Positions 10,036 to 61,666 of a stretch of 64,000 bases of DNA are shown here, one piece after another. The notes below the pieces were generated by a model, which was not told where the DNA came from, did no database searches, and worked only from the letters and a program-made list of their open reading frames with translations. The position numbers and the translations under genes are program-made. The first letter of the stretch is position 1. The number at the start of each line of letters is the position of its first letter. This DNA is from Lineus longissimus (Eukaryota; Nemertea; Pilidiophora; Heteronemertea; Lineidae): contig NC_088326.1 of NCBI RefSeq assembly GCF_910592395.1, forward strand, positions 12,157,001 through 12,221,000. Direction: 5' to 3'.

Positions 10036-12024
10036 CTAACCGTTACTTCCACCACCATGTTTCTCATTGCCATGGTTACCACCACTGCAACAGGAAACTG
10101 GCACCTCCATGGCGTCAAGGAGGATACGATGGACATCCGAAGGGATGTGACCTTGGTCGATCTTGTGACACCATTTCTTGCACTACAAGATGAAACGAAA
10201 GTCATTTTAAAGTGAAAATTGATTCTTTAAAGTCTTAGAGGGGGACTATAGGCAGGAGCCGAGATGCTAATTTGGCTGTCTTCAGGTGACTAATATATAC
10301 AGTAAGGGCACTGGGTCATGTCAGATTCAGCACTAAATGTATTCCTCGTACGAGCGTGAATCATTTCAACGTAATGTGAGATGTGAGATACCCTATTGGC
10401 GGCTTCGTATAACTTCATCTTGCCTGCCTAGCTGCTGCCTATATTGTCCCTTTAAAAGATAAAAGAAGTTTTGCCATTCTGTCAGTTATGAACAGAAGGG
10501 AGGCCATAATTATCTATCACCGCAGAACTGGACACCCCCTTTAAAGGGATGTTAGTCTTAATCATACTCACAGTCTCTAGTTCTTGTCTCAAGGCATGGA
10601 TGGCTCGTTCACGGTCAGTGACAAGCTCCTCAACGTACTGGTACCGCAACTTCTTCCTTGCCCGACATTCCCTTGCACTTTGGCGACTCCGCTCCAGTTT
10701 GACCTTGACATCAACCTTTGTCGGCCGACGACCTCTGCGGCCAGTCTTCTTGACTCGCCCACTGCCAGCCTGGGAGACATTTGAGAGTTGGGTTTTTACA
10801 TCATCTGTGTTGACCTGATCTTTGGCTTCCTCAATCTGAACAGATGTGGACATGTTTACTTGTTACAAAAAGAGACGAGATAACATTATCCTTAGTTGCT
10901 TGCCAGATTTAGGATGACAAAACTATGGATTGGACTGGGAGAGTCTGAAGTGACAGTCATCGCTTTCCACCGCCTGGAATTAATGAACTGGTGCCCTGTC
11001 CCAGCTCATTTCCTAATGTTCCCCTGGTCGTATCGCCCAGGTCTGACATTCCCCCAATCAGAATTGCAGGGTGCTGCATGGTTGAATTAGCCAAGCATTG
11101 GATGTGCATCATTTGGCTTTGAAAACATAATATAGATTCATGCACTTGATTGGGAACAACGTTTACATGACGTAGTGTTGGCCGTCGTCACATCACCATG
11201 CATTTTACATTAATGTGACGTGACGAGACGCGACGTTTTCGTAAACGTTGGTCCAAATCAAGTGCATGGATCTATAGTAACCGAGTGACTAGCTGGGTGC
11301 AACACATACATGCAGAACCCCGCCTTTACAATTGGGGGAACGAGAACTCTGTGAACAAAGATACGCACCCGCTTAATAGCATGATTGATTATGCATGAGA
11401 AATGATTACGTAATGCCAAAATCCAATATAACTGTCAATTTCCCCCCTGGGCCTCTGTTCTTTTATATTATAACTTTAAACATACCTTCTTGTTCCTTGT
11501 GTAGCCAAAGGCCGACCCACACCTCACATTTTGTGACCTATCTGCCAAGTGCCTTGACCAAGGACCTGCACCTCACACTTGACCCTTCTGCATGCCAAGT
11601 GCCTTACCCAAGGACCCACACCACTACCTTCTTGACCCATCTGCCAAGTGTGTTGCCCTAGGACCCACACCTCACTTGACTTAGGGTGTATTCAACTTCC
11701 AACACCAGCACATTTTCTCAGCTCGCAATTCCGACTCGGATATCATAATGTTGACCGCACAGGCGGTGGAGAGCAAACTGTCAGTCCAGAGTTTCCCAGT
11801 CCAATCCATAGTTTTGTAATCCATAGTTTCCAATACCCCATGCACTCCATCCACTCAGATCCAGCTGGATCTGGAATGACAGAAAATGAAACTACACCTT
11901 CACAAAAACACCCTATTTTAGACATTAACAAATCTCGACATTTTAATATCATTGTACAAACCTTGACTTTCATATCTTCTTGTTCAATTGTCAGCATTCG
12001 CTGCTCCATAAATGCCTCTGCCAT
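10036..12024 (-). CDS. CREBL2: CREBL2-like bZIP transcription factor
   Basis: Preferred model: exons 12024-11962, 10835-10572 and 10182-10036, all phase 0, 157 aa (human about 120). The basic region LERSRQSARECRARKKLRY at residues 68-86 is nearly identical to human CREBL2, preceded by the basic GRRGRRPTK and followed by QYVEELVTDRERAIHALRQEL (short zipper with L84, L92 and L107). The last exon gives KKWCHKIDQGHIPSD, matching the conserved tail after the zipper. In flies the orthologue is REPTOR-BP, a partner in TOR-responsive transcription; a nuclear metabolic regulator is the family expectation. The first exon (MAEAFMEQRMLTIEQEDMK…) is inferred from an in-phase donor at 11961 and acceptor at 10836. 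Alternatively translation starts at the ATG at 10853 (142 aa). A MITE occupies intron 2. Confidence 0.88.
10238..10455. mobile_element. MITE with GGGGGACTATAGGCAG ends
   Basis: The ends AGGGGGACTATAGGCAG and CTGCCTATATTGTCCCT are imperfect inverted repeats. There is no coding capacity. Other copies: 54010-54456 (interrupted), a fragment near 23636-23700 and a 3' fragment at 61505-61545. Located in CREBL2 intron 2. Confidence 0.7.
11500..11680. repeat. Short tandem-like repeat
   Basis: The phrase TGCCAAGTGCCTTGACCAAGG and variants followed by ACCYRCACCTCAC recur about four times at 50-60 bp spacing, in CREBL2 intron 1. Confidence 0.55.
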
Positions 12025-23927: not shown

Positions 23928-26490
23928 ATGAAATGAAATTTATTGGCCAAAACACAATCTTTGCATATAAGGCACGAAACACAAATGCAAATGTACATTA
24001 CTATCAATATATCAAAACAATAAATTTACAACATAACCACAATCCCACGTTGCTATCGTTACAGCACAGCTAATCAGAGGTCTAAAAGCGCTCTAGTTTT
24101 CTGAAGAAAACCGAGACATATGCGTTATGAAGACACAGTGACAGTAAACACACAAATAATGCAGCAACTGCATGTACATGTAATTTCAAACAAACCAAAA
24201 AATTGTAGTAACTGCTATGATTATTTACAGGACTAGAAATATTTAGGAACGTATTCAACATTTACGTTCCTAATTTTGAAAGCTTTGGTTATAAAATGTC
24301 CCAATGATGACACGACATGAAAATCTGTAGATGACAGTGTTTTTATGAATTTTAAGTCATTGGGAAGATTGCAGTTAGGCAAGTTGAGTCGGGACCGTTG
24401 ATGGTTGAAAAGATTACATTCAAACAGGAAATGAATCTCTGTTTCAACTTTATTGCAGTGGGGGCACAATCTTTCTGCAACCGGGGTGCCCGTGTATCTG
24501 CCAGACTCAATTTTTAATTTGTGATTACTTATCCTAAATCTAGTTAAATGAATTCGATCAATGGTCGGCAGCATCATTGATAGATAACTTTCATATGTGA
24601 AAGATGATTTGAATTGTCTGTAAAGACGGAGTTTGTTTTTCTGTGCAGGGTTCCTACATACATCATTATACAATATGGAATGCCATTCCTGTTGGTACAT
24701 ATCCTTTAACCTCATATTAAACAGAGAAATATCAACATTTGACACCTGGAAGTGGAGGAGTGACTGCCAAATGTTCCCAAGGCCAGAAAGATTTAAAGAC
24801 TTTTTCAGAGAGCCAATCCATGAAGATTTAGGATACCGTTTGACATTATCTAACTGAGATTTGAAGGCGAGTTTTAGGAGAAGATTATTGTTATTAACGT
24901 CAGTTACATGTTCACAAAAACGTAAAATTCTAGTAAGAATAACAACCTTCAAAGGATATCTCCCAAGTTCCCCAAGCACAACAGCATTGGGAGCGTATTT
25001 AGAGACACCTAAAACCTCTTTGCAAAATTTTAATTGCAGAGAATCAATACTGTTATTTGATTTTAACGACTCAAAACCCCATATCTCGCATCCATAAGAT
25101 AATACTGGGAGAACCATTGCATCAAATAGCTTCATGGATAAATGCACATCTTGCGAGAGTGATACAGGTTGATCATGCTTCAATTTGAAAACTGCCTTCC
25201 TGGCTTTATGACATATATCAGTTGCAGAGAATGAACATTTGCCAGAGGCATCTAATTTGATACCGAGGTAAGTGTAACTGTCTGCTACCTCAATCACTGA
25301 ATTATTAAATAGATACGTGTTTACCATGTCACACCTTAATCGTGGACTTTTAAACTCAACTACCTTTGTTTTAGATCTGTTCACTGTCAGATTCCACATA
25401 CTGCAGTACTGTTGAAGGCTGGCTAAAGTTTTATTCAAACCTTCAGCAGAGGAGGACAGTAAAACCAAGTCATCAGCATATAGTAAACAACATAATTTAT
25501 AATAATCAAGTTCAACACAATCATTACTATTTGATAACAAATGGCTTGGCAGATCTGACAAAAATAAATTAAAAAGAGTTGGACTCAACGAACAACCTTG
25601 CCGGACACCTCTAGACGTTCCAATTTTGGGAAGGAGACCGTCCGCCAGTTTAATTTGTGTCGAGCTATTTGCAAACATCGACTGAATAATATTGTACATA
25701 TTCCCTGTAACATTGCACTTTTGGAGCTTGTAGAGCAGACCAGGTCTCCAAACTGAGTCAAAAGCTTTGGAAAAACAAAAAACATGAGAAGAGACCTGTT
25801 TTTTTCTTTAAATTTGTATTTGTCTTGAAGAGACTTAAGGATGAAGGCGTTGTCCGAGGTGCGAACATTTTTCCGAAACCCACCTTGCTCTGGCGGGATA
25901 TGACCATTTGCATGTCAGCCGAGTGTTGACTAATTTAGTGAATAATTTACCAAGACAACTCGAGAGGCTAATACCCCTATAATTATTAGGGTCTTTTTTG
26001 GTACCTTTTTTATGTAAAACAGTCATATAGTCATTCGCCCAACTGGAGGGAAAATTTCCGGACTCAAGAATGGTATTGAACAGCTTACTGAGCGGTTTGA
26101 CTAACTTTGATTTTCACTTGAGCATCTCATTGAGAATATTGTCTGGACCACCAGCCTTACCATTTTTTAGTTGTTTCAACTCCAGAAGTATTTCATCTGA
26201 AGTTATTGGATCATCAAGTGGTTCTGGACCACTATTGCTCCTTTCAAGAGCTTCAAGTTGAGCAACAATATTTTTCTGGAAGGGCTTTAGTTCCAGTTCC
26301 ACCGTGGGATCAGAGAGTATACCTTTAAAGTGGGTAAACCATGTATCTGGAGAAACGTCATCTCCAGGTGACCTTTGTTTGGTTTCCAATTTTACCTTCT
26401 TTAAATAATCCCAAAATAATTTAGAATCTTTTGCCTCCAACTGGGATAAATCATTCTTCAACTGGTTCAGATTCGGCCTATGCCTTTTTA
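23928..26490 (-). mobile_element. Decayed CR1/L2-like non-LTR retrotransposon
   Basis: Minus strand, 5'-truncated (no endonuclease seen). Fragments in order: ITSDEILLELKQLKNGKAGG near 26150; SGNFPSSWANDYMTVLHKKG and DPNNYRGISLSSCLGKLF near 25990; SKAFDSVW near 25760; then a 488-codon frame 25699-24233 with GTSRGVRQGCSLSPTLFNLF, the catalytic LYADDLVLLSS, and a C-terminal Cys/His motif CPHC…EIHFLFEC. Frames change at least three times, and the Asp expected before FSKAFD is not visible (Cys in that frame), so it is inactive. The 3' end carries repeated TTTCA units typical of this group. Confidence 0.88.
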
Positions 26491-35704: not shown

Positions 35705-37975
35705 TTGGTTGTGACCGTCTCATCTCTCTCACCATGTTGGCAACACGGTGGAGCAGCCAGGACTGATTCGGCCTGGCTGTGACCGTCCCATCTCTCTCAC
35801 CATGTTGGCAACACGGTGGAGCAGCCAAGACTGTTTTGGCCTGGCTGCGACTGTCTCATCTCTCTCACCATATTTTGGCAACACGGTGGAGCAGCCAGGA
35901 CTGATTCGGCCTGGCTGTGACCGTCCCATCTCTCTCACCATGTTGGCAACACGGTGGAGCAGCCAAGACTGATTTGGCCTGGCTGTGACTGTCTCATCTC
36001 TCTCACCATATTTTGGCAACACGGTGGAGCAGCCAGGACTGATTCGGCCTGGCTGTGACCGTCCCATCTCTCTCACCATATGTTGGCAACACGGTGGAGC
36101 AGCCAGGACTGATTCGGCCTGGCTGTGACCGTCTCATCTCTCACACCATATGTTGGCAACACGGTGGAGCAGCTGGGACTGATTTTGCCTAGCTGTGACC
36201 GTCTCATCTCTCTCACCATATGTTGGCAACACGGTGGAGCGGCCAGAACTGATTTGGCTGGCTGTGACCGTCTCATCTCTGTCACCATGCTGTCAACATA
36301 GTGGAGCGGCCAGGACTGATTTGGCCTGGCGGTGACTGTCTCACCTCTTTCACCATGTTGACAACTGGGAGAGCAGCAAATACTGACTTGGCCTGGCTGT
36401 GACCGTCTCATCGCTCTCACCTTGTCAACACGGTGGAGTAGCCAGGACTGATTTGGACTGGCTGCGACCGTCTCATCTCTCTCACCATGTTGTCAACACG
36501 GTGGAGCAGCCAGGACTGATTTGGACTGGCTATGACCGTCTCATCTCTCTCACCATGCTGTCAACAAGGTGATGCAGCAAGGGCTGATTCGGCCTGGCTG
36601 TGACCGTCTCATCTCTCTCATCATGCTATCAACACGGTGCAGCAGCAAAGACTGATTGGCCTGGCTGTGACCGTCTCATCTCTCTTACCATGCTGTCAAC
36701 ACGGTGGAGCAGCCAGGACTGATTTGGCCTGGCTATGACCGTCTCATCTCTCTCACCATGCTGTCAACACGGTGGAGCAGCCAGGACTGATTTGGCCTGG
36801 CGGTGACTGTCTCATCTCTCTCGCCATGCTGTCAACACGGTGGAGCAGCGAGGACTGATTCGGCCTGGCTATGACCGTTTCATCTCTCCCATCATGCTGT
36901 CAACACGGTGGGACAGCTAGGACTGAATCGGTCTGGCGGTGACTGTCTCATCTCTCTCACCATGCTGTCAACACGGTGGAGCAGCGAGGACTGATTCGGC
37001 CTGGCTATGACCGTTTCATCTCTCCCATCATGCTGTCAACACGGTGGGACAGCTAGGACTGAATCGGTCTGGCTATGACCGTTTCATCTCTCCCATCATG
37101 CTGTCAACACGGTGGGACAGCTAGGACTGAATCGGTCTGGCTATGACCGTCTCATCTCTCTCGCCATGCTGTCAACACGGTGGAGCAGCGAGGACTGATT
37201 CGGCCTGGCTATGACCGTTTCATCTCTCCCATCATGCTGTCAACACGGTGGGACAGCTAGGACTGAATCGGTCTGGCTGTGACTGTCTCATCTCTCTCGC
37301 CATGCTGTCAACACGGTGGAGCAGCTAGGACTGATTCGGCCTGGCTGTGACTGTCTCATCTCTCTCGCCATGCTGTCAACACGGTGGAGCAGCGAGGACT
37401 GATTCGGCCTGGCTATGACCGTTTCATCTCTCCCATCATGCTGTCAACACGGTGGGACAGCTAGGACTGAATCGGTCTGGCTATGACTGTTTCATCTCTC
37501 CCATCATGCTGTCAACACGGTGGGACAGCTAGGACTGAATCGGTCTGGCTATGACCGTTTCATCTCTCTCATCATGCTGTCAACACGGTGGAGCAGCGAG
37601 GACTGAATCGGTCTGGCTATGACCGTTTCATCTCTCCCATCATGCTGTCAACACGGTGGGACAGCTAGGACTGAATCGGTCTGGCGGTGACTGTCTCATC
37701 TCTCTCACCATGCTGTCAACACGGTGGAGCAGCCAGGACTGATTTGGCCTGGCTATGACCGTCTCATCTCTCTCACCATGCTGTCAACACGGTGGAGCAG
37801 CCAGGACTGATTTGGCCTGGCGGTGACTGTCTCATCTCTCTCGCCATGCTGTCAACACGGTGGAGCAGCCAGGACAAATTTGGTCTGGCTGTGACAGTCT
37901 CATCTTTCTCATCATTATGGCAACACGGTGGAGCAGCCAGGACTGATTCAGCCAGGACAGATTCCAGCCGATGAG
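35705..37975. repeat. 68-bp minisatellite, about 33 copies
   Basis: CAACACGGTGGAGCAGCCAG begins at 35741, 35809, 35879, 35947 and so on, a 68-70-bp period. Each unit also has GACTGATTTGGCCTGGCTGT and GACCGTCTCATCTCTCTCAC. From about 36880 to 37680 a variant (GGGACAGCTAGGACTGAATC) alternates with the standard unit. Because 68 is not a multiple of 3, the repetitive minus-strand ORFs here (for example 35729-36079) are fortuitous. Confidence 0.96.
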
Positions 37976-38528
37976 ACAGTAGTATATCTCTTCTGTATGT
38001 GCCCCCCCCCCCTTCATAACTCACCATGTTGCCACACTCCTGATTTCCTCTCTCTTCCAGGCTTCCCGCCTCCAGTCCAGCGACAATGCCTTGCAAGATT
38101 GTCCTGTGCCAGTGAGCTGTCCAAATCAGCTGAGGTTCCATCTTCTCACTGTGCCATTCATCAATTCAGTTTTAAAAGGTCGAGTTCAGGGACAAATGGC
38201 ACAACTAACCAAACACAGAGTCTACTTTCCCCAACAACAAAATACACAAAACAAACTAATTTTCAATGTATAAAAGAAACGCTATATTCTGTCAAATGAA
38301 TAATATAAATACAAGTGTACAAGTACTATCATGATGGATTCCATCTCATACATATAGACCTCTCTTCTCAACATTTTTGTCAGCGTGATTTCGACCGAAT
38401 GCTGTATTTTGGTAAAAACAGATGAATACACCCTCAGCAATTATTGCAAAGCCCAAAATCAAATTACTTTTTCAATATCTTTTAAAAAGTTTGTTTGTTA
38501 TTTCCCTTTTTGTTTTTGTTCTAGTCAT
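37976..38528. other. PDCL3 3' flank
   Basis: Poly-C run near 38002. No gene recognised; part is probably the PDCL3 3' UTR. Confidence 0.4.
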
Positions 38529-42030: not shown

Positions 42031-45000
42031 ATGTCTGATGAGAAAAAGTTTGACCCGACCAGTGGCGGGCCAGTTGTTGAAGCATTAAATGGACACAGTA
42101 AAGACAATTCAATACAGAGAAACACTGGCAGGCCCCTTGAAGAGGTGTGTAGGTTATGCCATGGCCGGTGTCATGGTATTTTGTTCTTTTTTCTTGCAGA
42201 TTCAAACCTTGTTTCATTTGTTATCGCCTTATCGGTCTGTGTGTGAATTTTTTTACGTAACTGTACCCCAACCTAAACTTCAGAGTGGTTACTTACTCTG
42301 GCAGACCCTGTTAACCTCATCAGTTCCTATAAACAAATGAAACAAGGTGGATCTGTTCTTTTTTGTGTTGGTTACCAGATCATGTAGGGGTAGAAGAAAT
42401 TAGGGCCTTTTTCAACTAACAGTGACTAGTGTAGAATATTAGGCTAAGAACGGTAGATAGATTGCGAGAAAATTCCATAGCGACTTCTCACCCTAACTTG
42501 GAAGGTTACCACCCTTCCCTGACTTTTTAAAAGGGTTTCTATAGGGCCACCCTTCCTTTTGTTGCACACTGGCAAATCGTTTTGAATATCAAGGGTACCA
42601 TCCTTCCTTGAGAAAACCCTATAATGAACCCTGGACACTGATTCAGACCCCAAGGAGTATATTTCAGTCCCACTGGTCATCTGGTAGATTTTTAGCTCCA
42701 ACATTTTGAGAGCAGTATTTTCCTTCAAGTTAGGTTGTGGGGTTTAATGAAAAAATCTTTGCCCCGGCTCCCTGAAGAACTTAAAGTTTTCGAAATCCCA
42801 GACCAGAAAATTTTTCCTTTTTTTTGCTGTGCACACCCCTGAATGAACAATACATGTACTTCATCTCTTTCTTCCCCATTCAATCAGTTATTGTGTCGCT
42901 GATTTTCTGTTGGAATTTTTATCTGTCACTGTTCTAATATTGTATCTTTTGCTGTTTCTAGGTGAAGTCATACAGTAACGGCATTCCGAAGCCTGGAAAC
43001 TCGCCTGCGTCAAATTTGCCGCCGATCAAAAAGGATATGAAGACGCGCCAAGATGATGAAGAAAAGGAACCGACCCCGTCTGCTTCCACTAGGAAGGGGT
43101 CCACAGGAAATACCCCCGACTCCAAAAAGACAACACCGCCGAAATTCCCGCCATTGCCAGACTCGCCTGACTGGGAATGCGGCAGCATGGTGGGAAAGAT
43201 ACGGACGCGTAACTTGTCGTCTGCTAGTGTCAGTTCGGCAGGGTCTTCGTTGAAATCGTCAAGGTTTCCGGTTCGTCCTGGAATATCTTGGAGAGTGAAC
43301 GCACGGGTCGAGGCAATGGACTTCCTCGAGAAGTGGTACCCGGCCAAAATCGTTGAAATGGACGAGGACGATTTGACGATTCTGATACATTTTGAGGGAT
43401 GGAATCAACGCTATGATGAGTGGGTTCCTATGACGACGGACCGCCTTCGACCGATGACAAGACATTCAGATCGCAAGGAGGGGAAGCCAGTGACTAAATT
43501 GGTAAATGTTCAGGCTACATTGTGCTGCAAAATGGGAACTTTTTTGCTGGAGGTCAATTTGAATGGAAATAATCTACTTATACTTGGTCCAAAATTAGTG
43601 TCCTTAGTAGAAAGGGTGTCTTGCTTACAGAGGTGTCCATAGTGGAGGTTTGACTGTACTTGAATAAATGATCTATAAAAAATACTTTATATTCCAGGTA
43701 CACAAATTGGGGGAAAAAGTTCTGGCAAAATGGACAGATTGTCGTATGTACCCAGCTAAAGTTGTCTCCGTGAATCAAAACGGCTCGTACGAAGTTGTTT
43801 TCTACGATGGCTTCAAGAAGACTATCCAGCCGATCAATGTGAAGCCACTTCCGGCCCACATGCAAGAGGAGGTTCAGGTAGGTTCAAACCATTCAAGGAA
43901 CGGGAAAAGGGGATGGGGGGGGGCTGAGAATATGTTCCCCAAAATAATTAAAGTTACAAAAGTGGTACCGTGTGAAAATGGTCAGTGGAAGCTTTCCAAT
44001 GAATGGTTGTGTCTGTATACATGTGATGATGGGATTCTTTTTAAACCATACTGAAAAAATTCCAAACCGAGTTCGATAACGTCTGTCTGGCTATCTGGCG
44101 ATCAAATAAAGGTCTGGTCTGGTCTGGTCTGGTCTGACGCATTGATATCAAAAACCTGGGAAAACACTGAAATTGTACCTCAAGCTTTGCCGATTCCATT
44201 TCAGAACATTGCATTTCCAGCCGTAGCTCTATCGCCCCCAGTTCCGCCTCCGAAGAAGAAAGAGGACGGACCGTTGCCAAGGTCGAGGTCAAAGGAGCGG
44301 GACAAGGGGAAAGAACAGAGCAAGTCTAAGTCGAGGGACAGGTCAAAGAGCTCTGGGAGTGAACAGGGTATAGCTTGATGTCATGTGTAATCCGTCACAG
44401 CAATACCAGGCCCATGTCGTGCAGAAGATGAGCCTAAATGACACCAGGAGATAATGGAAGAAATTGATGTGCTCATATTTCACAAAAGGCTGAAAATGGT
44501 GAAATGAATAACCAGTCCGCTTCAACTGTCAAGCTCGGAGCGACATGCACCTGGTTTTGCTGTGACGGGTCACACGTTTTAAAGTAAAAAAGACCTTTCA
44601 GAAATTTATGAAGAATTCGTTTGTAATATTTGAAGGCGTTATTCTTGTACACTTGGCCACAGCGGGTCCTATTCATGTTCCGTCTCTTTAATCTGCAGGT
44701 GGTTCTGTTCCAAGGAAAAATTCCGAGAAGTCTGCAGAGTCGTGTAACCCGATGCTGTCACGACGTAACAAGGGGCAGAGTCGGTCCCTCGACAGCAAGC
44801 CCCCTGCACGGAAACCTAGCGGAGATAATCAGGACAGGAAAGGTGAGGTAGGATCTGGAAAATCAGGGATCAAAATTAAGGCGGCAGTCCCATGGGGATT
44901 ATTTTTTAATCTGGGTACGAACGAGCACTGGCCCCTCCTTAGATTTTCTGTTTGGGGGTAAGGCGGCAGTTTGAAAGGAAAACTCGCCCAATATCAATAA

Positions 45001-54753: not shown

Positions 54754-57700
54754 ATGGCACTTGCAAGAAGTACAGGCAGATTAATTTCTCTTTTGAGGTA
54801 ATGCCGATAATTTAACTTGATGATGTAATAAATGGTGAATTAAAGTTGATGAAAACGAGTTGTTTGAATAATTCGCGTTTATGCATAAGAGCTGACAATG
54901 TTTAAAAAGTCAAGCAAACAACGTTCCTGTTTTCAGTGTGGTCACCATGCATTTAGTCCTTTAGTGTACCCTAATTTCGACAGTACCCAAACTCAATCGA
55001 AGCCTGACCCGTTCTTGTCGTGACGTAAGCTTTGTTTTCAGCCCAGTGAGATAAAGTTGATACGAATGCCATTCAGCTGACAAACTGTGTCGTTCATCAA
55101 TGAATCAGTTGTTGTTGACCTCTCAACTAACTCGTTATGTCGGTATGATGATGATGATGCAACCTACTACAACGCCAACAGCAACCAACAGCACTCCACA
55201 GTCTACATCATACACATGCAGCCTCTGACTCTGAGTCTGACTCTGAGCCTGGGGTAGAAGAACAGTAGAAAAAATTCCACTCCATGAACTTGAGAAACCT
55301 CTTGTGGTGGTGGAGTGGCCAAACTTTGCAAAGTTATGGGGTCAGTCTCTGTTGATTTTGACTTCATGTCACTGTCAGACATGATAAATTGACTGATTAA
55401 CTTGAATACATTCATACCTTAATTGATTTAAAGGGATTAACAGATTTCGAGAAACTCTGTAAAATTCTGAATTCTGAGACACAATCCGTTATAATTAAAA
55501 CAGGAAAATACTTGAAATCTATATGGGATTTAAGAAGTAGTTTACTTCTGACATAACACTTGCTCTTTCCTGTATACTCTACTGTATTTTCTTTTCCGTA
55601 ATGTATCCTGTATTTTGTGCTGTATTCTGAATTCTGTATTTTGCCATAGTATCCTTGTATACATTAAGCGCAATAAAATATTATTATTATATTATTATAA
55701 ATGATATTATTTATTAATTATTGTACTGAACCAGGTCAGGTCCAAAACAAAAACAAATGTCCACACTCGGAACCTGTCACAGACAGAAGGCCTAAGTAAG
55801 GACCTTAAAGGATTGGACAATGACATAAGCCAATTTGACCCTCGCCCTTTGTTCCAGATTAAACGTATGACTTGTCAGTGCCAAAACAAACTCTGTCGAA
55901 AGGTCTAATTGTCCATTTGTGAATTCATAAATTTACGAATGACTTTATGAAGGACTCCAACTGCCAAAGCTCTGGTGGCCTTGGACTGGTTTAATTTGAG
56001 CATTATCGTTATAGGCCTACTTTGCTCTTTTTTTCCAGGCAGAACACCCGGATGATGGCCGGTGGTGAATGGGGTGCAGGAGAGGGAAAGGTTAGTGAGA
56101 TATTTGCTAGGTTTACTTGCATCTTTCGTGAACAGAGGTCGAACTCTGTTGTATTGGAAAGGTGTTGTGCTATTTATTACAATGAAAGGTATTGTGCTGT
56201 ACAGGGAAAGGCATTGTGCTATATATAAGGAAGGTAATATTGTGCAATGCAAGACTCAATATCATTATTGTGGTGTGTACTGAAATATTTATGAGCATGC
56301 CATTGAAACGTATTAGACCACATATAAACATTTTGAAGAGCTCCCAATGAGGAACCCGCAGACCTAAAAATCCAGATGGCAGCACCAGTTGGCAGGTTTT
56401 GTTGTGCAGGTCCCTCATTTTGATTGAAAGAGGCCTTCTTTTTGTACATGTAGTGAACTTAGTTCAGTGGCACATTGCCAATGACCGAGGGCCTAGATGC
56501 CTTCGGGCTTGGTGCCTTAAAAACTTGTCTAGCCATAATGTTTGCTGTGGTAAACTGAAGGTGTTTGGCTCGTGTCGGTCAATGTCTGGTCTTGTTGTGC
56601 TTCGAGAGGAAGAGTCAGTATGCAGTGTAGGCTTCTGACGAGGAGTGTTTTTCAGCGTGCTAAAAACGTGTGGTATGATAATGTGCCGTCTCGGACATTA
56701 TTAGAGAGGATCAGGAAGGGCCAAAAATATGAACAGGTATTTCTCTGAACAGTTCTTCAGATCAGAATGGAGGATGTCAAACAGCAATGGAAGAACGAGT
56801 TCGAATTTTATTTGAATCGTTTCAACTCAAAACAAGATATTTCCGTTTTTGCTATTTTTGTGACTGAAAAACAGAGTTTTGAATTTTTTATCGTTTTAGT
56901 CATGAATGCTCTTGTGTTAATGTTGGCCCGAATGCTCTGAAATTTAGAGGACAGAAGAGTCATAGACGAAGTCATAGCATGGTTATTAACTCCAAATTGT
57001 TTGATTTGGCACATCTTGTTATTCATTTTGCGATGGAACTCTTCATTTGTGTCTCTGCTGATACAACCCCCCTCCTTTCACTCCATCCTCCATCAAGGGG
57101 CACCAACTAACCTGGTCAACAATTAATGAGCAAAATTTGTGTGTGGAATATTAGAAAATGAAAAGCCCATTGGTGTCAATGATTGTGTCTTAACAGGCAT
57201 GGCATGCAATCAGCTATGATGCGTTTCTTTTCTTTTCAGGGTGGTGGAAAAGGGGGATCTATTAGGTAAGTTTGTCACCACTTCCAAGGGGGCAAAGATG
57301 GCTCCAAGAAGTCCATTTTCCAAATATGCCAAAACATTGGTTTGGTCGTGCAAAAACTCATTTAGGTTGTGATAAATCTAACAGAATTCAGCTGCTCTAA
57401 GCACCTCACATCTGCCTGGCTATCGGCCCGTATATTCATGGTACTAACAAGCTCTGCTCCCTGAGAGCATTAACAGGTCCGAGGTGTGACTATAATGGCT
57501 CAGGACTGACATTCCTATTCTTGCATCCTTTGCCAGCAAAGTACTCGTACTCTTGGGTGGAGAGAAGCACAGACAAGTAAGTGCCCAGCTCAGGGACAGA
57601 AAGCAAAACCTTGAAAATACAATGCTCGTGAAAATTTGGCGGTTTAATTGAATTTGTCAACTCACTTTTGCAGGGATGCCGGCGGTTCATTTGGTAAGAT

Positions 57701-60700
57701 GGAGGCCGCCCGAGAAGAAGAATACTTTAGGAAGTTGGTAAGTTGATTATGACCACTTTCGTCGTTCCTGGCTTAAAAAAATTGAGTTTCATTAGACCAA
57801 GTGATGTCACCGTGCACAGTACAGCCATGGTGGACATCATCTCATGTTTTTACATCAATTTCAAATCTTTACTAGAATCAAGTCATCAGTCCATTCCTGA
57901 TTGGTGAACATTTGACTAATCTACAAACGTTCTATTTATCAGATAAATATCAAAATAAATATTCGTATTTTCTTGATTTATGGATCAAAATATCTTAGAC
58001 TTTTGCTAGTAATATACATGTAGGGTATACTCTGGTAGCATTACAAGTGTACCTCACCTCTGAACAGAATTTTAAGCTCACCGTTCAAACTTGTTGTACA
58101 TGTACATTGTTCATCGAACTATTTGTGTAACAAGTCCTTCCTCTTCAGCTTCAAGGGATTTTCTTTCTTTCTGGGGTGCCTTGGATTTGATGCCACGTAT
58201 CCTAATGATCCCATTCACCATTCCAATTCAGACACAACTTGAATCAATAGAGTATTTTGGCAGTCCTAGCCTACTACCGACTCCCTAAATTGCATCTTTG
58301 AGGATATTTTGGTGCATCAACTCTTTTCATGACCATCCACCTGGCAATGGAAATTCCTTCCTTTACCTTTATACTCTGCGGACAAAATTCCTAAATATCA
58401 TATTTTTGAAAAAAATTAAATTTCTCATTTTCTTCCGAATGTTGCTCAGAGTCAAGAGGTGGCCAGCATGCCTTCATTCTTGGGATATTTTCTCATTGAG
58501 TTTCAATAAAACACATCTCGATTTCAGCAAAAGAAACAATTCGGGGACATGACGGAAGGCCTCGAGAAAGAGATTGAATATCACGAATATCATGTTAAAC
58601 ACCATAAGGTAGCCTCACCTGCTGCTCAGAGACGAGACCCGTCAGGTTTTCTAGTTTTGGGCGACGGGTTAACTGATCACTCATGAGTAATCAATGGATA
58701 TAATCGTGGCTCTTATAGTGATAACACTGTCACTGAAGAGAATCTGGCCTGAAAAATGCCTTGGCCTTGCAGACAAGCGATTTAAATCGCAGCTTTATGC
58801 AATTATAATCCCTGCTATGTGCGACCAAGTGACCTGTGTGTAATCACGGTTATCAGATTCAGGTCACGGCAAAACACGAAGTATTGGAGTGATCAGATAG
58901 CCATTGCGTTCAAAACTAGGAAGCTCTGTTTCGTCTTTAATAGTAGGCCATTGTTGTCTTGCACTGCCGTAAGATGGGGTGACTGTGGTCCAGAGTGGGG
59001 TGAAAATGACCCATACCCTTTCCCCTATTCATCTTGAACCATTCATGGTAAATCTTCTATTTCAGTTGAATCAATGTACAATATATGTTACAATATACAT
59101 GTAAAAGTCAATTCAATCAGAGGACTAATCTTATAGGGCCAAATTCATAGAGGGCGTTTAGCTTAAAAAAACAGCGTTTAACTACTGAATAGACAGATTC
59201 AGGTCCTTCATGTAAATCTTCACAGAATATGAATAGGCCCTGAAACTGATTAGAGAGAAGTTGCACACGTCTAACCCTTAAACGCCCTTTATGAATTTGG
59301 TCAATATAGTTTAGCCCACATAAGATTTGGGAGTTTGGTAATTTCACCCCACTTTACGGTAGACTGCTAGTATAGTGTTGCTGTTCTTTTAGACCAGGCG
59401 GCTTTTTTCGTTGGATGAATATGGTTATTGCCGTGGTGTTTTCCATTATTTTGACGTGAAAAAGTCTATGATGACATGAAAGATGTGATCGGAAAGAGTC
59501 ATTTGAAAGCTTTCAAATGACTGGTCACGTCAATGGTTTTAAAAATTGCCAAAAAAACTTGTACTCCTTTGCGAAATTTTAGGTCACTCTTGGTACTGAT
59601 AATCGGATACCTAAAAATGTTGAGTATGACAGAGTCAAAATTGTAGGTTGTTTCACTTTGCATTCATTCGATAGCCATATTCATCTAATTTTGCATGTGT
59701 GTTCTGATGGGCAACATGACAATCTTCCATTGGCTCTGCATTCTCATGTAAAAGTCATTTATCCATTTCAGGCAGGGCATATCTTTCTTTCCCCCTCACC
59801 TAGTAGCGCCCCCATGCTTGGCACAGCTTAATCATCCATTTCACCTCTTACTTTACTTAATAACAACAGCAACAACAACAGTTGAAGAAACTCCATGACC
59901 ATCATGAACACGAGATTGATAACCACGAGGCCGAAATTAAACGTCACAAGGTACACCAAAAATATAAACAACCAAGGGCAAGATAAGTTCAAGTTGCCCA
60001 CTAAGGCTTCTGAATTCTCTCAGCCCTGATTACATCTCTTGGTGCACAGCCAGAAGTCTCTACGCCTACGAAAATTCCTTCCGATTTCCGTTTTGAATAA
60101 CAGGCCTTTCATTCACATGACGATGATGTGCGCAAGTGGCATTGCGATCACTCGAGCACTTGTAACTGCGACAGATACTACTAAAACAGCGCCATCTGGT
60201 GTGCAGTCATTGAATTGTAGTTTCCTCGGAGAAGTAAATATTGGCGTAGAAACTCGGGTGGATGCGGCAAGAAATGTAACCATAGACTGTCGGGTTCAAG
60301 AGCATCGTCGCAACCACAGCAGCAGAAAGGGTCACAGGTTTTCCTCGACAATAGTATTGAAAAGCTTCTTGGGTAATTTTCTATTTGCATAATCAGCAAC
60401 AAAGTCAGCTGCGAGGACTGCGGGCTCATTTAGAGGAGGAGGTCAAATTTCACGAAACTGAAATTGTTGGGCATAAGGTAAAGAAATGGCTGCTGTATCC
60501 TGGAATATATTCGCAGGCGTTTTTAATTCACGGTGAATGAGTGTGACTATGAAATTGAACAGTGTGAAAAACATTTTTGAGGGGAATTATTAAATGAAAG
60601 CCCGTATTTGGTCCGACCTTTTGAGAAGGAACGAATATATTCTGGGATACAGTAATTTCTTCAACCTAGCTATGCTTTACCGAAACCAAAAGAAACATTT

Positions 60701-61666
60701 CGCGGAGTGGTTTTCATTTTCAGGGCTTGAGATAACACTGAAAAATGATGTCTTTTGAGAATGTTACAGGTAATACTGTATGAAACTTGGCCCAGAACCA
60801 GGACCAGGACCCTCAAGCTTGGAATTGTAAACAAACAAATTCAAACTGTTCAGGATTTCGGAGATAAAATGTTTGGTTTGACTCCTTACCTAGGAAGTGC
60901 TGCTTGAGCCCTGATTCTAAACTGCTTGAAATTCTACCTCGGTGACTTGGCTTTTAGCTGTACATAAACTGTGGGCTGTGCTGAGGCCCCATGAATTATA
61001 TTTTAGTTTTGAACTTATGCCAGTGCTACTAATGGTCTTGTTCTTATGTACCCTTCCCTGGTTTCACATGGCACTTTTGACGTGGTGATTTAGGCATCGG
61101 GTATTGGTGCATTATGACATTCTTAAAAAAAATTTCTTGCATGGTCAAGTACTACTTTTCAGTGTCTTGTTTTGTAGAAACCGCTTCAGTTATTTCCTAA
61201 GTGTGTTGTTTGCGTAGTGTACTAGTGTATTCTGAAACACCTTGGTTACAATGAGCCACAGATTACAGTGTGTAGTGTACTATGCACCCACTGAGCCTCG
61301 TTTTGACGGCAACGGCCGCTTGCGTTGGTGCAAAATATGGAAGCAGTGAAAAATCATTCAAAATTACTTGTCATTGGTCATTGTGAGGTGTTTTATGATA
61401 GAAATTGATACCTCACTGTCGGAGTAAGCTGTCTCATCTAACGCTGCTCATGTGGAATTATCATTTCGCCCAAAAATATGGCTGTCGCCTCGATACTGGC
61501 GTATTTTCATTCTGCCTAGCTGCTGCCTGTATTGTCCCTTTAAGTGAATTCTGTTGGTGAAATTAAAACCTGAAATTCTGTATTTCAGGAGGCGATTGAG
61601 CGCCACAAGAAGAGAATCGGCCAGCTCCACCACGAGGAGAAAAAACACAAAAAGGATGACGATTAA
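54754..61666 (+). CDS. ATP5IF1: Mitochondrial ATP synthase inhibitor IF1 with three alternative exons
   Basis: Constant exons 54754-54797, 56039-56090, 57240-57265, 57674-57737 and 61589-61666, plus one of three 81-nt exons: 58528-58608 (A), 59870-59950 (B), 60397-60477 (C). With any one exon the protein is 114 aa (human 106). Residues 1 to about 20 (MALARSTGRLISLLR…) are an Arg-rich presequence. The inhibitory motif is GGSIRDAGGSFGKMEAAREE with EYFRKL (family: GSIREAGGAFGK…ERYFR), and the C-terminal coil ends EAIERHKKRIGQL…KKDDD. IF1 inserts into F1-ATPase and blocks ATP hydrolysis at low matrix pH. A, B and C are phase 0/0 and all begin with a Q-rich start and end HK. B is closest to mammalian IF1 and keeps the adjacent His pair; A and C change it. 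Including all three would also keep the frame but lengthen the coil by 54 residues. The splicing mode is inferred. Confidence 0.92.
54840..56038. other. ATP5IF1 intron 1, mostly featureless
   Basis: Contains a short ATGATGATGATG run near 55146 and AT-rich TTATTATTATATTATTAT near 55681. No other feature recognised. Confidence 0.4.
57535..57605. repeat. SINE family 2 body fragment
   Basis: CTTGGGTGGAGAGAAGCACA and GCCCAGCTCAGGGACA match the body of the SINE at 48985-49186. ATP5IF1 intron 3. Confidence 0.5.
58528..58608 (+). CDS. ATP5IF1: ATP5IF1 alternative exon A
   Basis: Acceptor ATCTCGATTTCAG, donor AAG/GTAGCC. It encodes 27 residues starting QKKQFGDMTEGL and ending HEYHVKHHK. At the positions of the mammalian His48-His49 pair it has Gly-Leu; the later His (bovine His56 position) is kept. 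Confidence 0.8.
59137..59302. mobile_element. Small MITE with ~24-bp inverted ends
   Basis: GGCCAAATTCATAGAGGGCG (59137) pairs with CGCCCTTTATGAATTTGGTC (59283). 166 bp, no ORF of note, in the intron between ATP5IF1 exons A and B. Confidence 0.7.
59497..59522. repeat. Perfect 26-bp palindrome
   Basis: AGTCATTTGAAAG followed by its exact reverse complement CTTTCAAATGACT. Between ATP5IF1 exons A and B. Confidence 0.9.
59870..59950 (+). CDS. ATP5IF1: ATP5IF1 alternative exon B (canonical-like)
   Basis: Acceptor ACTTAATAACAACAG, donor AAG/GTACAC. It encodes QQQQLKKLHDHHEHE then IDNHEAEIKRHK. It aligns without gaps to the mammalian segment, including LKK…HHE and EI…H. A second CAG 12 nt downstream gives a 69-nt version lacking QQQQ. 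Confidence 0.82.
60397..60477 (+). CDS. ATP5IF1: ATP5IF1 alternative exon C
   Basis: Acceptor TTTGCATAATCAG, donor AAG/GTAAAG. It encodes QQSQLRGLRAHLEEE then VKFHETEIVGHK. The first His of the pair is present and the second is Leu. A second CAG 12 nt downstream again gives a 69-nt version. Confidence 0.8.
61505..61545. mobile_element. 3' fragment of the 10.2-kb MITE family
   Basis: CTGCCTAGCTGCTGCCTGTA and TTGTCCCTTTAA match the right end of 10238-10455. About 45 bases before the last ATP5IF1 exon. Confidence 0.6.

What the first reader, a model, noticed from the sequence alone, without database searches (positions are those of the whole stretch)
58528..60477. Three equal-length alternative exons in ATP5IF1 that vary the pH-sensing histidines
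Seen: three exons of exactly 81 nt, phase 0 on both sides, each coding 27 residues starting with a Q-containing stretch and ending in HK, between the same constant exons. From the FGK motif, exon B aligns with mammalian IF1 without gaps and keeps both histidines at the His48-His49 site. Exon A has Gly-Leu there and exon C has His-Leu. Known: His49 of bovine IF1 controls the pH-dependent change between the active dimer and inactive oligomers, and replacing it removes pH sensitivity. Inference: mutually exclusive splicing yields IF1 isoforms with different pH response or oligomerisation, which would suit an animal facing repeated anoxia. I know of no described IF1 exon cassette of this kind, though I cannot search.
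Basis: partly seen in the sequence, partly recalled or inferred. Interest (0 to 1): 0.9.

Follow-up and report, generated by a model that had tools for sequence, protein, structure and literature searches.

The report
Three swappable exons in IF1 gene
In a marine ribbon worm, the gene for IF1, the small protein that stops mitochondrial ATP synthase from burning ATP when respiration fails, carries three interchangeable exons that swap the part with its acid-sensing histidines, and similar swaps are annotated in another ribbon worm and in snails.

Summary
The window is Lineus longissimus (bootlace worm). Exons A (58528-58608), B (59870-59950) and C (60397-60477) are each 81 nt, phase 0-0, with AG/GT borders. 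Two 5' starts times three cassettes reproduce RefSeq isoforms X1-X6 letter for letter, so databases already hold the isoforms; the paper searches made here found no description. A profile built without Lineus scores the exons 63, 48 and 40 bits; the next of 33,009 open 81-nt frames scores 4. The cassette replaces bovine residues 38-64.

New here: five more species (Tubulanus, Gigantopelta, Pomacea, Babylonia, Littorina) have isoforms identical except for this 27-residue block. Within gastropods two cassette classes are old; a common nemertean-mollusc origin is unresolved.

The pH reading is partly supported. B has His48-His49, A Gly-Leu, C His-Leu. But residue 49 is His in only 29 of 218 fetched proteins and in no other isoform set seen, so an H49 switch is Lineus-specific in this sample. 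Best reading: splicing exchanges the helix joining the inhibitory and dimerising parts of IF1, tuning pH gating or oligomerisation. One-of-three splicing is annotated, not measured; function is inferred.

The parts
54754..54797 (+). 5' coding exon 1a of isoforms X4-X6 (44 nt, starts at ATG)
56039..56090 (+). 5' coding exon 1b of isoforms X4-X6 (52 nt)
56620..56736 (+). alternative first coding exon of isoforms X1-X3 (117 nt of coding sequence)
57240..57265 (+). constant 26-nt exon coding GGGKGGSI
57674..57737 (+). constant exon with the FGK motif and the front of the inhibitory helix (bovine residues up to 37, Glu26 included)
58528..58608 (+). cassette exon A, 81 nt; Gly48-Leu49, Tyr55; His at 56, 59, 62, 63 (isoforms X2, X5)
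59870..59950 (+). cassette exon B, 81 nt; His48-His49, Asn55; His at 46, 48, 49, 51, 56, 63 (isoforms X1, X4)
60397..60477 (+). cassette exon C, 81 nt; His48-Leu49, Phe55; His at 48, 56, 63 (isoforms X3, X6)
61589..61666 (+). constant last coding exon, second part of the dimer coiled coil, with stop codon

Best explanation
[quoted passage not shown] SHOWN by sequence or annotation: three intact homologous exons of equal length and phase; six annotated isoforms, each with exactly one; the same 27-residue block swapped in annotated isoforms of five other species. INFERRED: the cassettes are interchangeable stretches of one long helix (bovine 38-64) that cover the end of the F1-binding part, part of the oligomerisation part and the front half of the dimer coiled coil. 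All keep Gln41 and hydrophobic residues at 42 and 45, so all should still inhibit F1. They differ at the pH gate: B (His48-His49) should form inactive oligomers above neutral pH as mammalian IF1 does; A and C (Leu49) cannot make the Glu26-His49 bridge and should stay active over a wider pH range, like the H49K mutant. The worm could then mix pH-gated and ungated IF1 by splicing.
For: Exact reproduction of X1-X6 from window exons; profile scores far above background; all three isoforms match PF04568; flank-identical isoform pairs in five other species, and in no pair of the 218 fetched proteins outside these six species; AlphaFold2 gives one helix through the cassette for isoforms B and A (monomers, shallow alignments). 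Papers (passages): His49 replacement gives activity at pH 8 and no oligomers (PMC3433140); H49K constitutively active (PMC10906535; PMC6156145); Glu26-His49 salt bridge in the inactive tetramer (PMC3041923).
Against: No read counts, no protein data. Frame allows doubles and skips; no exclusion mechanism found. His49 occurs in no other isoform set seen, so the pH switch would be private to Lineus. Yeast IF1 lacks His49, and PMC3433140 reports pH-dependent activity also in peptides 22-46 and 32-43, so Leu49 need not mean loss of pH response. Residues 39 and 40, whose mutation strongly lowers binding of bovine IF1 (PMC3041923), also differ between cassettes (KK, QQ, QS), so F1 affinity may change as well.
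Confidence: 0.5

Rival explanations
1. The cassette is a true one-of-three exon set, but it tunes something other than pH gating: F1 affinity, dimer stability or another contact, perhaps by tissue or stage.
For: Residues 39, 40, 43 and 44, all of which affect binding of bovine IF1 (PMC3041923), differ between the cassettes. Across the eight isoform sets the regular contrast is at residue 55 (aromatic in 8 of 9 alternative cassettes, His or Asn in 8 of 8 others) and not at 49; classes were sorted partly by residue 55, so this describes and does not test. His55 is one of the five conserved mammalian histidines (PMC3433140), so this could still be about pH.
Against: In Lineus the cassettes differ exactly at the best-studied pH residue of IF1.
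Confidence: 0.35
2. The isoforms are interchangeable in function; the duplicated exons persist without a distinct role, and His49 in B is incidental.
For: Alternative cassettes diverge faster than the B-like class: Lineus B, Tubulanus X1 and Mytilus X3 score 82-104 with each other, while Lineus A scores at most 73 with any cassette outside Lineus. Position 49 varies freely among hydrophobic residues.
Against: All three exons stay open, equal in length and IF1-like; cassette classes persist among Gigantopelta, Pomacea and Babylonia.
Confidence: 0.1
3. Annotation artefact: only one cassette is used in mRNA, or the three are joined in one mRNA.
For: RefSeq X models are computed; read support was not checked; the frame would tolerate double or no inclusion.
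Against: Models hold exactly one cassette each; no doubled (148 aa) or skipped (94 aa) Lineus form stands among the 120 listed of 153 hits, although both lengths were allowed; five other species show the same pattern; P0122, Mytilus-like, carries an alternative cassette unbroken on a listed contig of 1,241 bases, short enough for a cDNA (source unknown).
Confidence: 0.05

Closest known systems
Mammalian IF1 / ATP5IF1 (bovine IF1, PDB 1gmj and 1ohh; Pfam PF04568)
   Same: Same family, register without length difference over bovine 10-81, Glu26, Gln41 and His70 kept; exon B keeps His48-His49.
   Different: The segment 38-64 is encoded by three alternative exons; His55 is Asn, Tyr or Phe; A and C lack His49. 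Human splice forms were not examined.
IF1 isoform pairs in RefSeq: Tubulanus polymorphus, Gigantopelta aegis, Pomacea canaliculata, Babylonia areolata, Littorina saxatilis
   Same: Isoforms with entirely identical flanks and a different 27-residue block at the same place.
   Different: Two cassettes seen per species against three in Lineus; none has His49. Genomic exon structure not seen for these species.
Clusters of mutually exclusive exons (e.g. Dscam, myosin heavy chain; named in the abstract of PMC3228551)
   Same: Neighbouring homologous internal exons of equal length, same phase, compatible splice sites.
   Different: Exclusivity not measured; no enforcing mechanism found; the host gene codes for a mitochondrial ATPase inhibitor of about 115-121 residues.

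Membership tests
IF1 / IATP (PF04568) | Profile match over the curated cut-off | tested here: met
   First member (exon B form) 72 bits against a cut-off of 25; the family is matched by 3 of 3 isoforms, best E 3.4e-20
IF1 / IATP (PF04568) | Inhibitory helix residues that contact F1 (Phe22, Glu30, Tyr33, Phe34, Gln41, Leu42, Leu45) | tested here: met
   Phe22, Glu30, Tyr33, Phe34 in the constant exon FGKMEAAREEEYFRKL; 41/42/45 are Q/F/M in A, Q/L/L in B and C; A only with conservative changes
IF1 / IATP (PF04568) | Inhibition of F1-ATPase hydrolysis | not testable with these tools
   needs purified protein
pH-gated (His48-His49) IF1 of mammals | His49 | tested here: inconclusive
   met in exon B, not met in A and C
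Mutually exclusive exon cluster | Homologous neighbouring exons of the same length, phase and splice-site type | tested here: met
   81 nt each, phase 0-0, AG/GT; profile scores 62.9, 48.4, 40.3
Mutually exclusive exon cluster | Exactly one member in each mRNA | tested here: inconclusive
   true of all six RefSeq models; reads not available
Mutually exclusive exon cluster | A mechanism that enforces exclusion (short intron, unlike splice sites, frameshift on doubles, RNA docking) | tested here: not met
   introns 446 nt or longer, all GT-AG, 81 nt keeps frame; RNA docking: 3 of 60 and 60 of 60 shuffles as good. Protein regulators were not testable, and such a mechanism is not needed for the definition

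The most novel reading that the evidence does not exclude
IF1 of nemerteans and molluscs is governed by an ancient splice switch that exchanges exactly the segment up to the middle of the dimer. The bovine coiled coil spans 49-81, whose midpoint, 65, is the first residue after the cassette; in an antiparallel dimer each cassette would face the partner's constant exon, so any two isoforms could pair. In Lineus this would allow mixed dimers with one pH-gated and one ungated arm, and puts the His49 state (seen here in echinoderms, hemichordates, cnidarians, scallops) and the Leu49 state of most other fetched IF1s into one gene, chosen by splicing: a natural version of the H49 mutant experiment.
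Probability: 0.22. Interest if true: 0.8.

Novelty: new variant of a known kind. Interest (0 to 1): 0.6.

Why it matters
IF1 decides whether mitochondria spend or save ATP when respiration fails, and how far its pH gating and oligomerisation matter in living animals is not settled. A gene that makes IF1 with and without the gating histidine by splicing would make that testable: read out which exon is used with and without oxygen, and compare the isoforms in the test tube. It would also show that a small regulator usually treated as one protein is splice-variable in nemerteans and gastropods.

Tried and rejected
Tried: (1) Docking/selector RNA pairing between introns as the exclusion mechanism: weakest-of-three duplex -25.0 kcal/mol upstream, reached by 3 of 60 shuffles; downstream -23.2, reached by 60 of 60. 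No support. (2) One origin of the alternative cassettes in nemerteans and molluscs: unresolved. Over six two-cassette sets, column 55 masked, the class labelling has the best score (2 of 64 label flips reach it: itself and its mirror), but with one set per clade 6 of 16 reach it in both subsets tried; Littorina was left out of this test because both its cassettes have His55, and Lineus because it has three. The tree has 27 columns, 23 of 33 inner branches open, and its bootstrap had not settled. AU tests rejected none of: Lineus A with Tubulanus X2 (p 0.54), the three Lineus exons as one clade (p 0.33), the five nemertean cassettes as one clade (p 0.36); so separate duplications in nemerteans are not excluded. 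(3) A fourth cassette in the window: none. (4) A second IF1 gene: protein search of the genome gave four exon hits in this locus (E 5.4e-9 to 2.6e-4) and three elsewhere at E 1.8 to 8.2; exons A and C were not hit, so sensitivity is limited. The family search found nothing here nor in 14 controls and says nothing. (5) Inverted repeats in the introns (59122-59317; 60493-60652): copy number not tested, since one search did not complete. (6) Papers: searches showed no paper on IF1 cassettes; searches returned nothing, and only 15 of 2,580, 15 of 16, 15 of 1,743 and 15 of 37 were listed. Only openly licensed PMC papers are held. (7) NCBIfam: no match for the 3 isoforms; that library names prokaryote proteins.

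Rejected: chance open frames; pseudo-exons (all three open, with AG/GT borders and annotated isoforms).

Full report
WHAT IS THERE. Six RefSeq proteins, 'ATPase inhibitor mai-2, mitochondrial-like' isoforms X1-X6 of Lineus longissimus, are what this gene encodes, and the window lies at C20:12157001-12221000 of a 391,118,348-base assembly, the published size for this species (391 Mb; PMC8593623, abstract and passages). Joining the window exons gives the six proteins letter for letter: first exon 56620-56736 with B, A, C gives P0001, P0002, P0003 (X1, X2, X3); 54754-54797 plus 56039-56090 with B, A, C gives P0004, P0006, P0005 (X4, X5, X6). A, B and C are 81 nt each, phase 0-0, AG before and GT after, with introns of 790, 1261, 446 and 1111 nt from the constant exon to A, A to B, B to C and C to the last exon. 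Pairwise they share 45 (A-B), 43 (A-C) and 45 (B-C) of 81 nucleotides.

IS IT CHANCE. No. A 27-column profile from 212 IF1 cassettes of other organisms, the six Lineus proteins left out, was run over 33,009 open 81-nt frames on both strands. B, C and A come first with 62.9, 48.4 and 40.3 bits; the next scores 3.9 and has no AG/GT borders; mean -49.2, sd 10.1. No fourth copy stands in the window.

PLACE IN THE PROTEIN. The match to bovine IF1 runs from query 35-106 to chain 10-81 (1ohh_H and 1gmj_A), so the cassette (63-89 of P0004) is bovine 38-64. By the domain map in PMC3433140 (passages) it covers the end of the minimal inhibitory sequence (14-47), part of the oligomerisation domain (32-44), much of the histidine-rich region (48-70) and the front half of the antiparallel coiled coil (49-81). 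At 41, 42, 45 the cassettes have Q/F/M (A), Q/L/L (B), Q/L/L (C); these residues contact the beta subunit in bovine F1-IF1 (PMC3041923, passages). At 39-40 they have KK, QQ, QS; mutation of bovine Lys39 or Glu40 strongly lowers binding (same paper), which speaks for an effect on affinity too. At 48-49: Gly-Leu, His-His, His-Leu. At 55-56: Tyr-His, Asn-His, Phe-His. Histidines sit at 56, 59, 62, 63 in A; 46, 48, 49, 51, 56, 63 in B; 48, 56, 63 in C. Glu26, which bridges to His49 of another dimer in the inactive tetramer (PMC3041923, passage), is in the constant exon. AlphaFold2 monomers of a B isoform (alignment of 3) and an A isoform (alignment of 18) show one unbroken helix through the cassette with pLDDT over 90 there: in these models the swap changes the helix surface, not the fold. 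With a coil of 49-81 the midpoint is 65, the first residue after the cassette; I infer that cassette residues 49-64 face the partner's constant residues 66-81. This is arithmetic on a published range, not a model.

OTHER ANIMALS. Three searches gave 218 different proteins; each lists only its best 120, of 153, 955 and 1,093 hits, and all three queries were lophotrochozoan IF1s, so the sample leans that way. Among all pairs of the 218, 11 pairs have entirely identical flanks and different cassettes, and they fall in six species: Lineus (3 cassettes), Tubulanus polymorphus, Gigantopelta aegis, Pomacea canaliculata, Babylonia areolata and Littorina saxatilis (2 each) (also 31, where 216 of 218 had the anchor, and 34). 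Two more sets are composites: Haliotis (H. rubra X1 with H. rufescens X2) and Mytilus (M. galloprovincialis X3 with unnamed P0122), flanks near-identical (0.95 and 0.98). Oysters, limpets, cephalopods, pulmonates and others showed no cassette pair in these lists, which does not show that they lack one.

AGE. A tree of 36 cassettes groups Gigantopelta X2, Pomacea C0Q70_07450, Babylonia X1 and Littorina X2 and X3 (95/81) apart from Gigantopelta X1, Pomacea X1 and Babylonia X2 (93/76), as expected if two classes existed before these gastropods split. Littorina's two seen cassettes both fall in the first group, so they may be another duplication. Lineus B scores best with Tubulanus X1 and Lineus A with Tubulanus X2, but Lineus C scores best with Pomacea X1. 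The tree leaves nemertean against mollusc exons open, a label-flip test with one set per clade was not significant (6 of 16, twice), and AU tests do not reject a separate nemertean origin (p 0.36).

WHAT VARIES. Residue 49 is His in 29 of 218 proteins (25 of 201 distinct cassettes), Leu, Ile, Val, Phe or Met in 183 (171), other in 6. By the listing names the His49 carriers include echinoderms, hemichordates, cnidarians, scallops, a priapulid and Owenia. Among the 17 cassettes of the eight sets only Lineus B has it. Residue 55 is aromatic in 8 of 9 alternative cassettes (Littorina X3 is the exception) and His or Asn in 8 of 8 of the others; residue 48 is His in 8 of 8 B-like cassettes and 4 of 9 alternatives. 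I sorted the classes partly by residue 55, so this is description, not a test; over the whole sample 55 is aromatic in 105 of 218.

MECHANISM. For mammals, passages say: above neutral pH dimers form inactive oligomers; replacing His49 leaves IF1 active at pH 8 and stops oligomers (PMC3433140); H49K is constitutively active (PMC6156145, PMC10906535). Inference for Lineus: isoform B pH-gated, A and C not, or otherwise. Cautions: yeast IF1 lacks His49 and a glutamate is proposed as sensor there, and short peptides without the histidines also respond to pH (PMC3433140). One-of-three splicing is annotated in all six models; frame, intron length and splice-site dinucleotides do not force it, and RNA pairing gave no support. 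No reads were at hand.

NOVELTY. The isoforms are in RefSeq and UniRef, so databases hold them. No paper describing them was found (listings with titles and starts of abstracts; capped lists; openly licensed papers only). IF1 and exclusive exons are each known kinds; their combination, its place in the protein and its spread over nemerteans and gastropods were not found described. I rate it a new variant of a known kind.

LIMITS. Species names come from search listings; group names for them are recalled. RefSeq models were not checked for read support, and genomic exon structure was seen for Lineus only. The genome search found no second IF1 locus below E 1.8 but missed exons A and C, so it is not exhaustive. 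PMC3228551 was seen as outline and abstract; PMC9317440, which speaks of two histidine pairs as the pH sensor of animal IF1, as passages.

Noticed in passing
54754-54797 and 56039-56090 against 56620-56736: Two alternative 5' coding exon sets give IF1 different mitochondrial leader regions (MALARSTGRLISLLRQ... and MQCRLLTRSVFQRAKN...), each combined with all three cassettes in RefSeq.
   Followed up: partly
Tubulanus polymorphus P0026/P0057: The constant exon reads FGRKGAAQEEE, so Glu26, the bridge partner of His49 and a proposed pH sensor, is Gly in this nemertean (3 of 218 proteins have Gly there: P0026, P0057, P0046).
   Followed up: no
57240-57265: A 26-nt constant microexon codes the glycine-rich GGGKGGSI stretch.
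   Followed up: no
59122-59317 and 60493-60652: Hairpin-forming inverted repeats in the introns after A (39-nt arms, 77% complementary) and after C (21-nt arms, 90%); copy number in the genome not tested.
   Followed up: no
42962-43639 +: Open frame with Tudor-knot (E 3.2e-6) and MBT (9.3e-5) matches; PHF20-like by recall.
   Followed up: partly
10485-10862 -: Open frame with a bZIP_2 match (E 7e-8); CREBL2-like by recall.
   Followed up: partly
24236-25807 -: 524-residue open frame with a reverse transcriptase match (RVT_1, E 3.4e-25), probably a retrotransposon piece.
   Followed up: partly
35729-38165 -: Repetitive open frames with a recurring QSWLLHRV-like unit, probably tandemly repeated DNA.
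   Followed up: no
PDB 7dtl_A: A solved chain named PSK is an IF1 homologue (E 2.5e-21 to the Lineus profile); origin not looked up.
   Followed up: no
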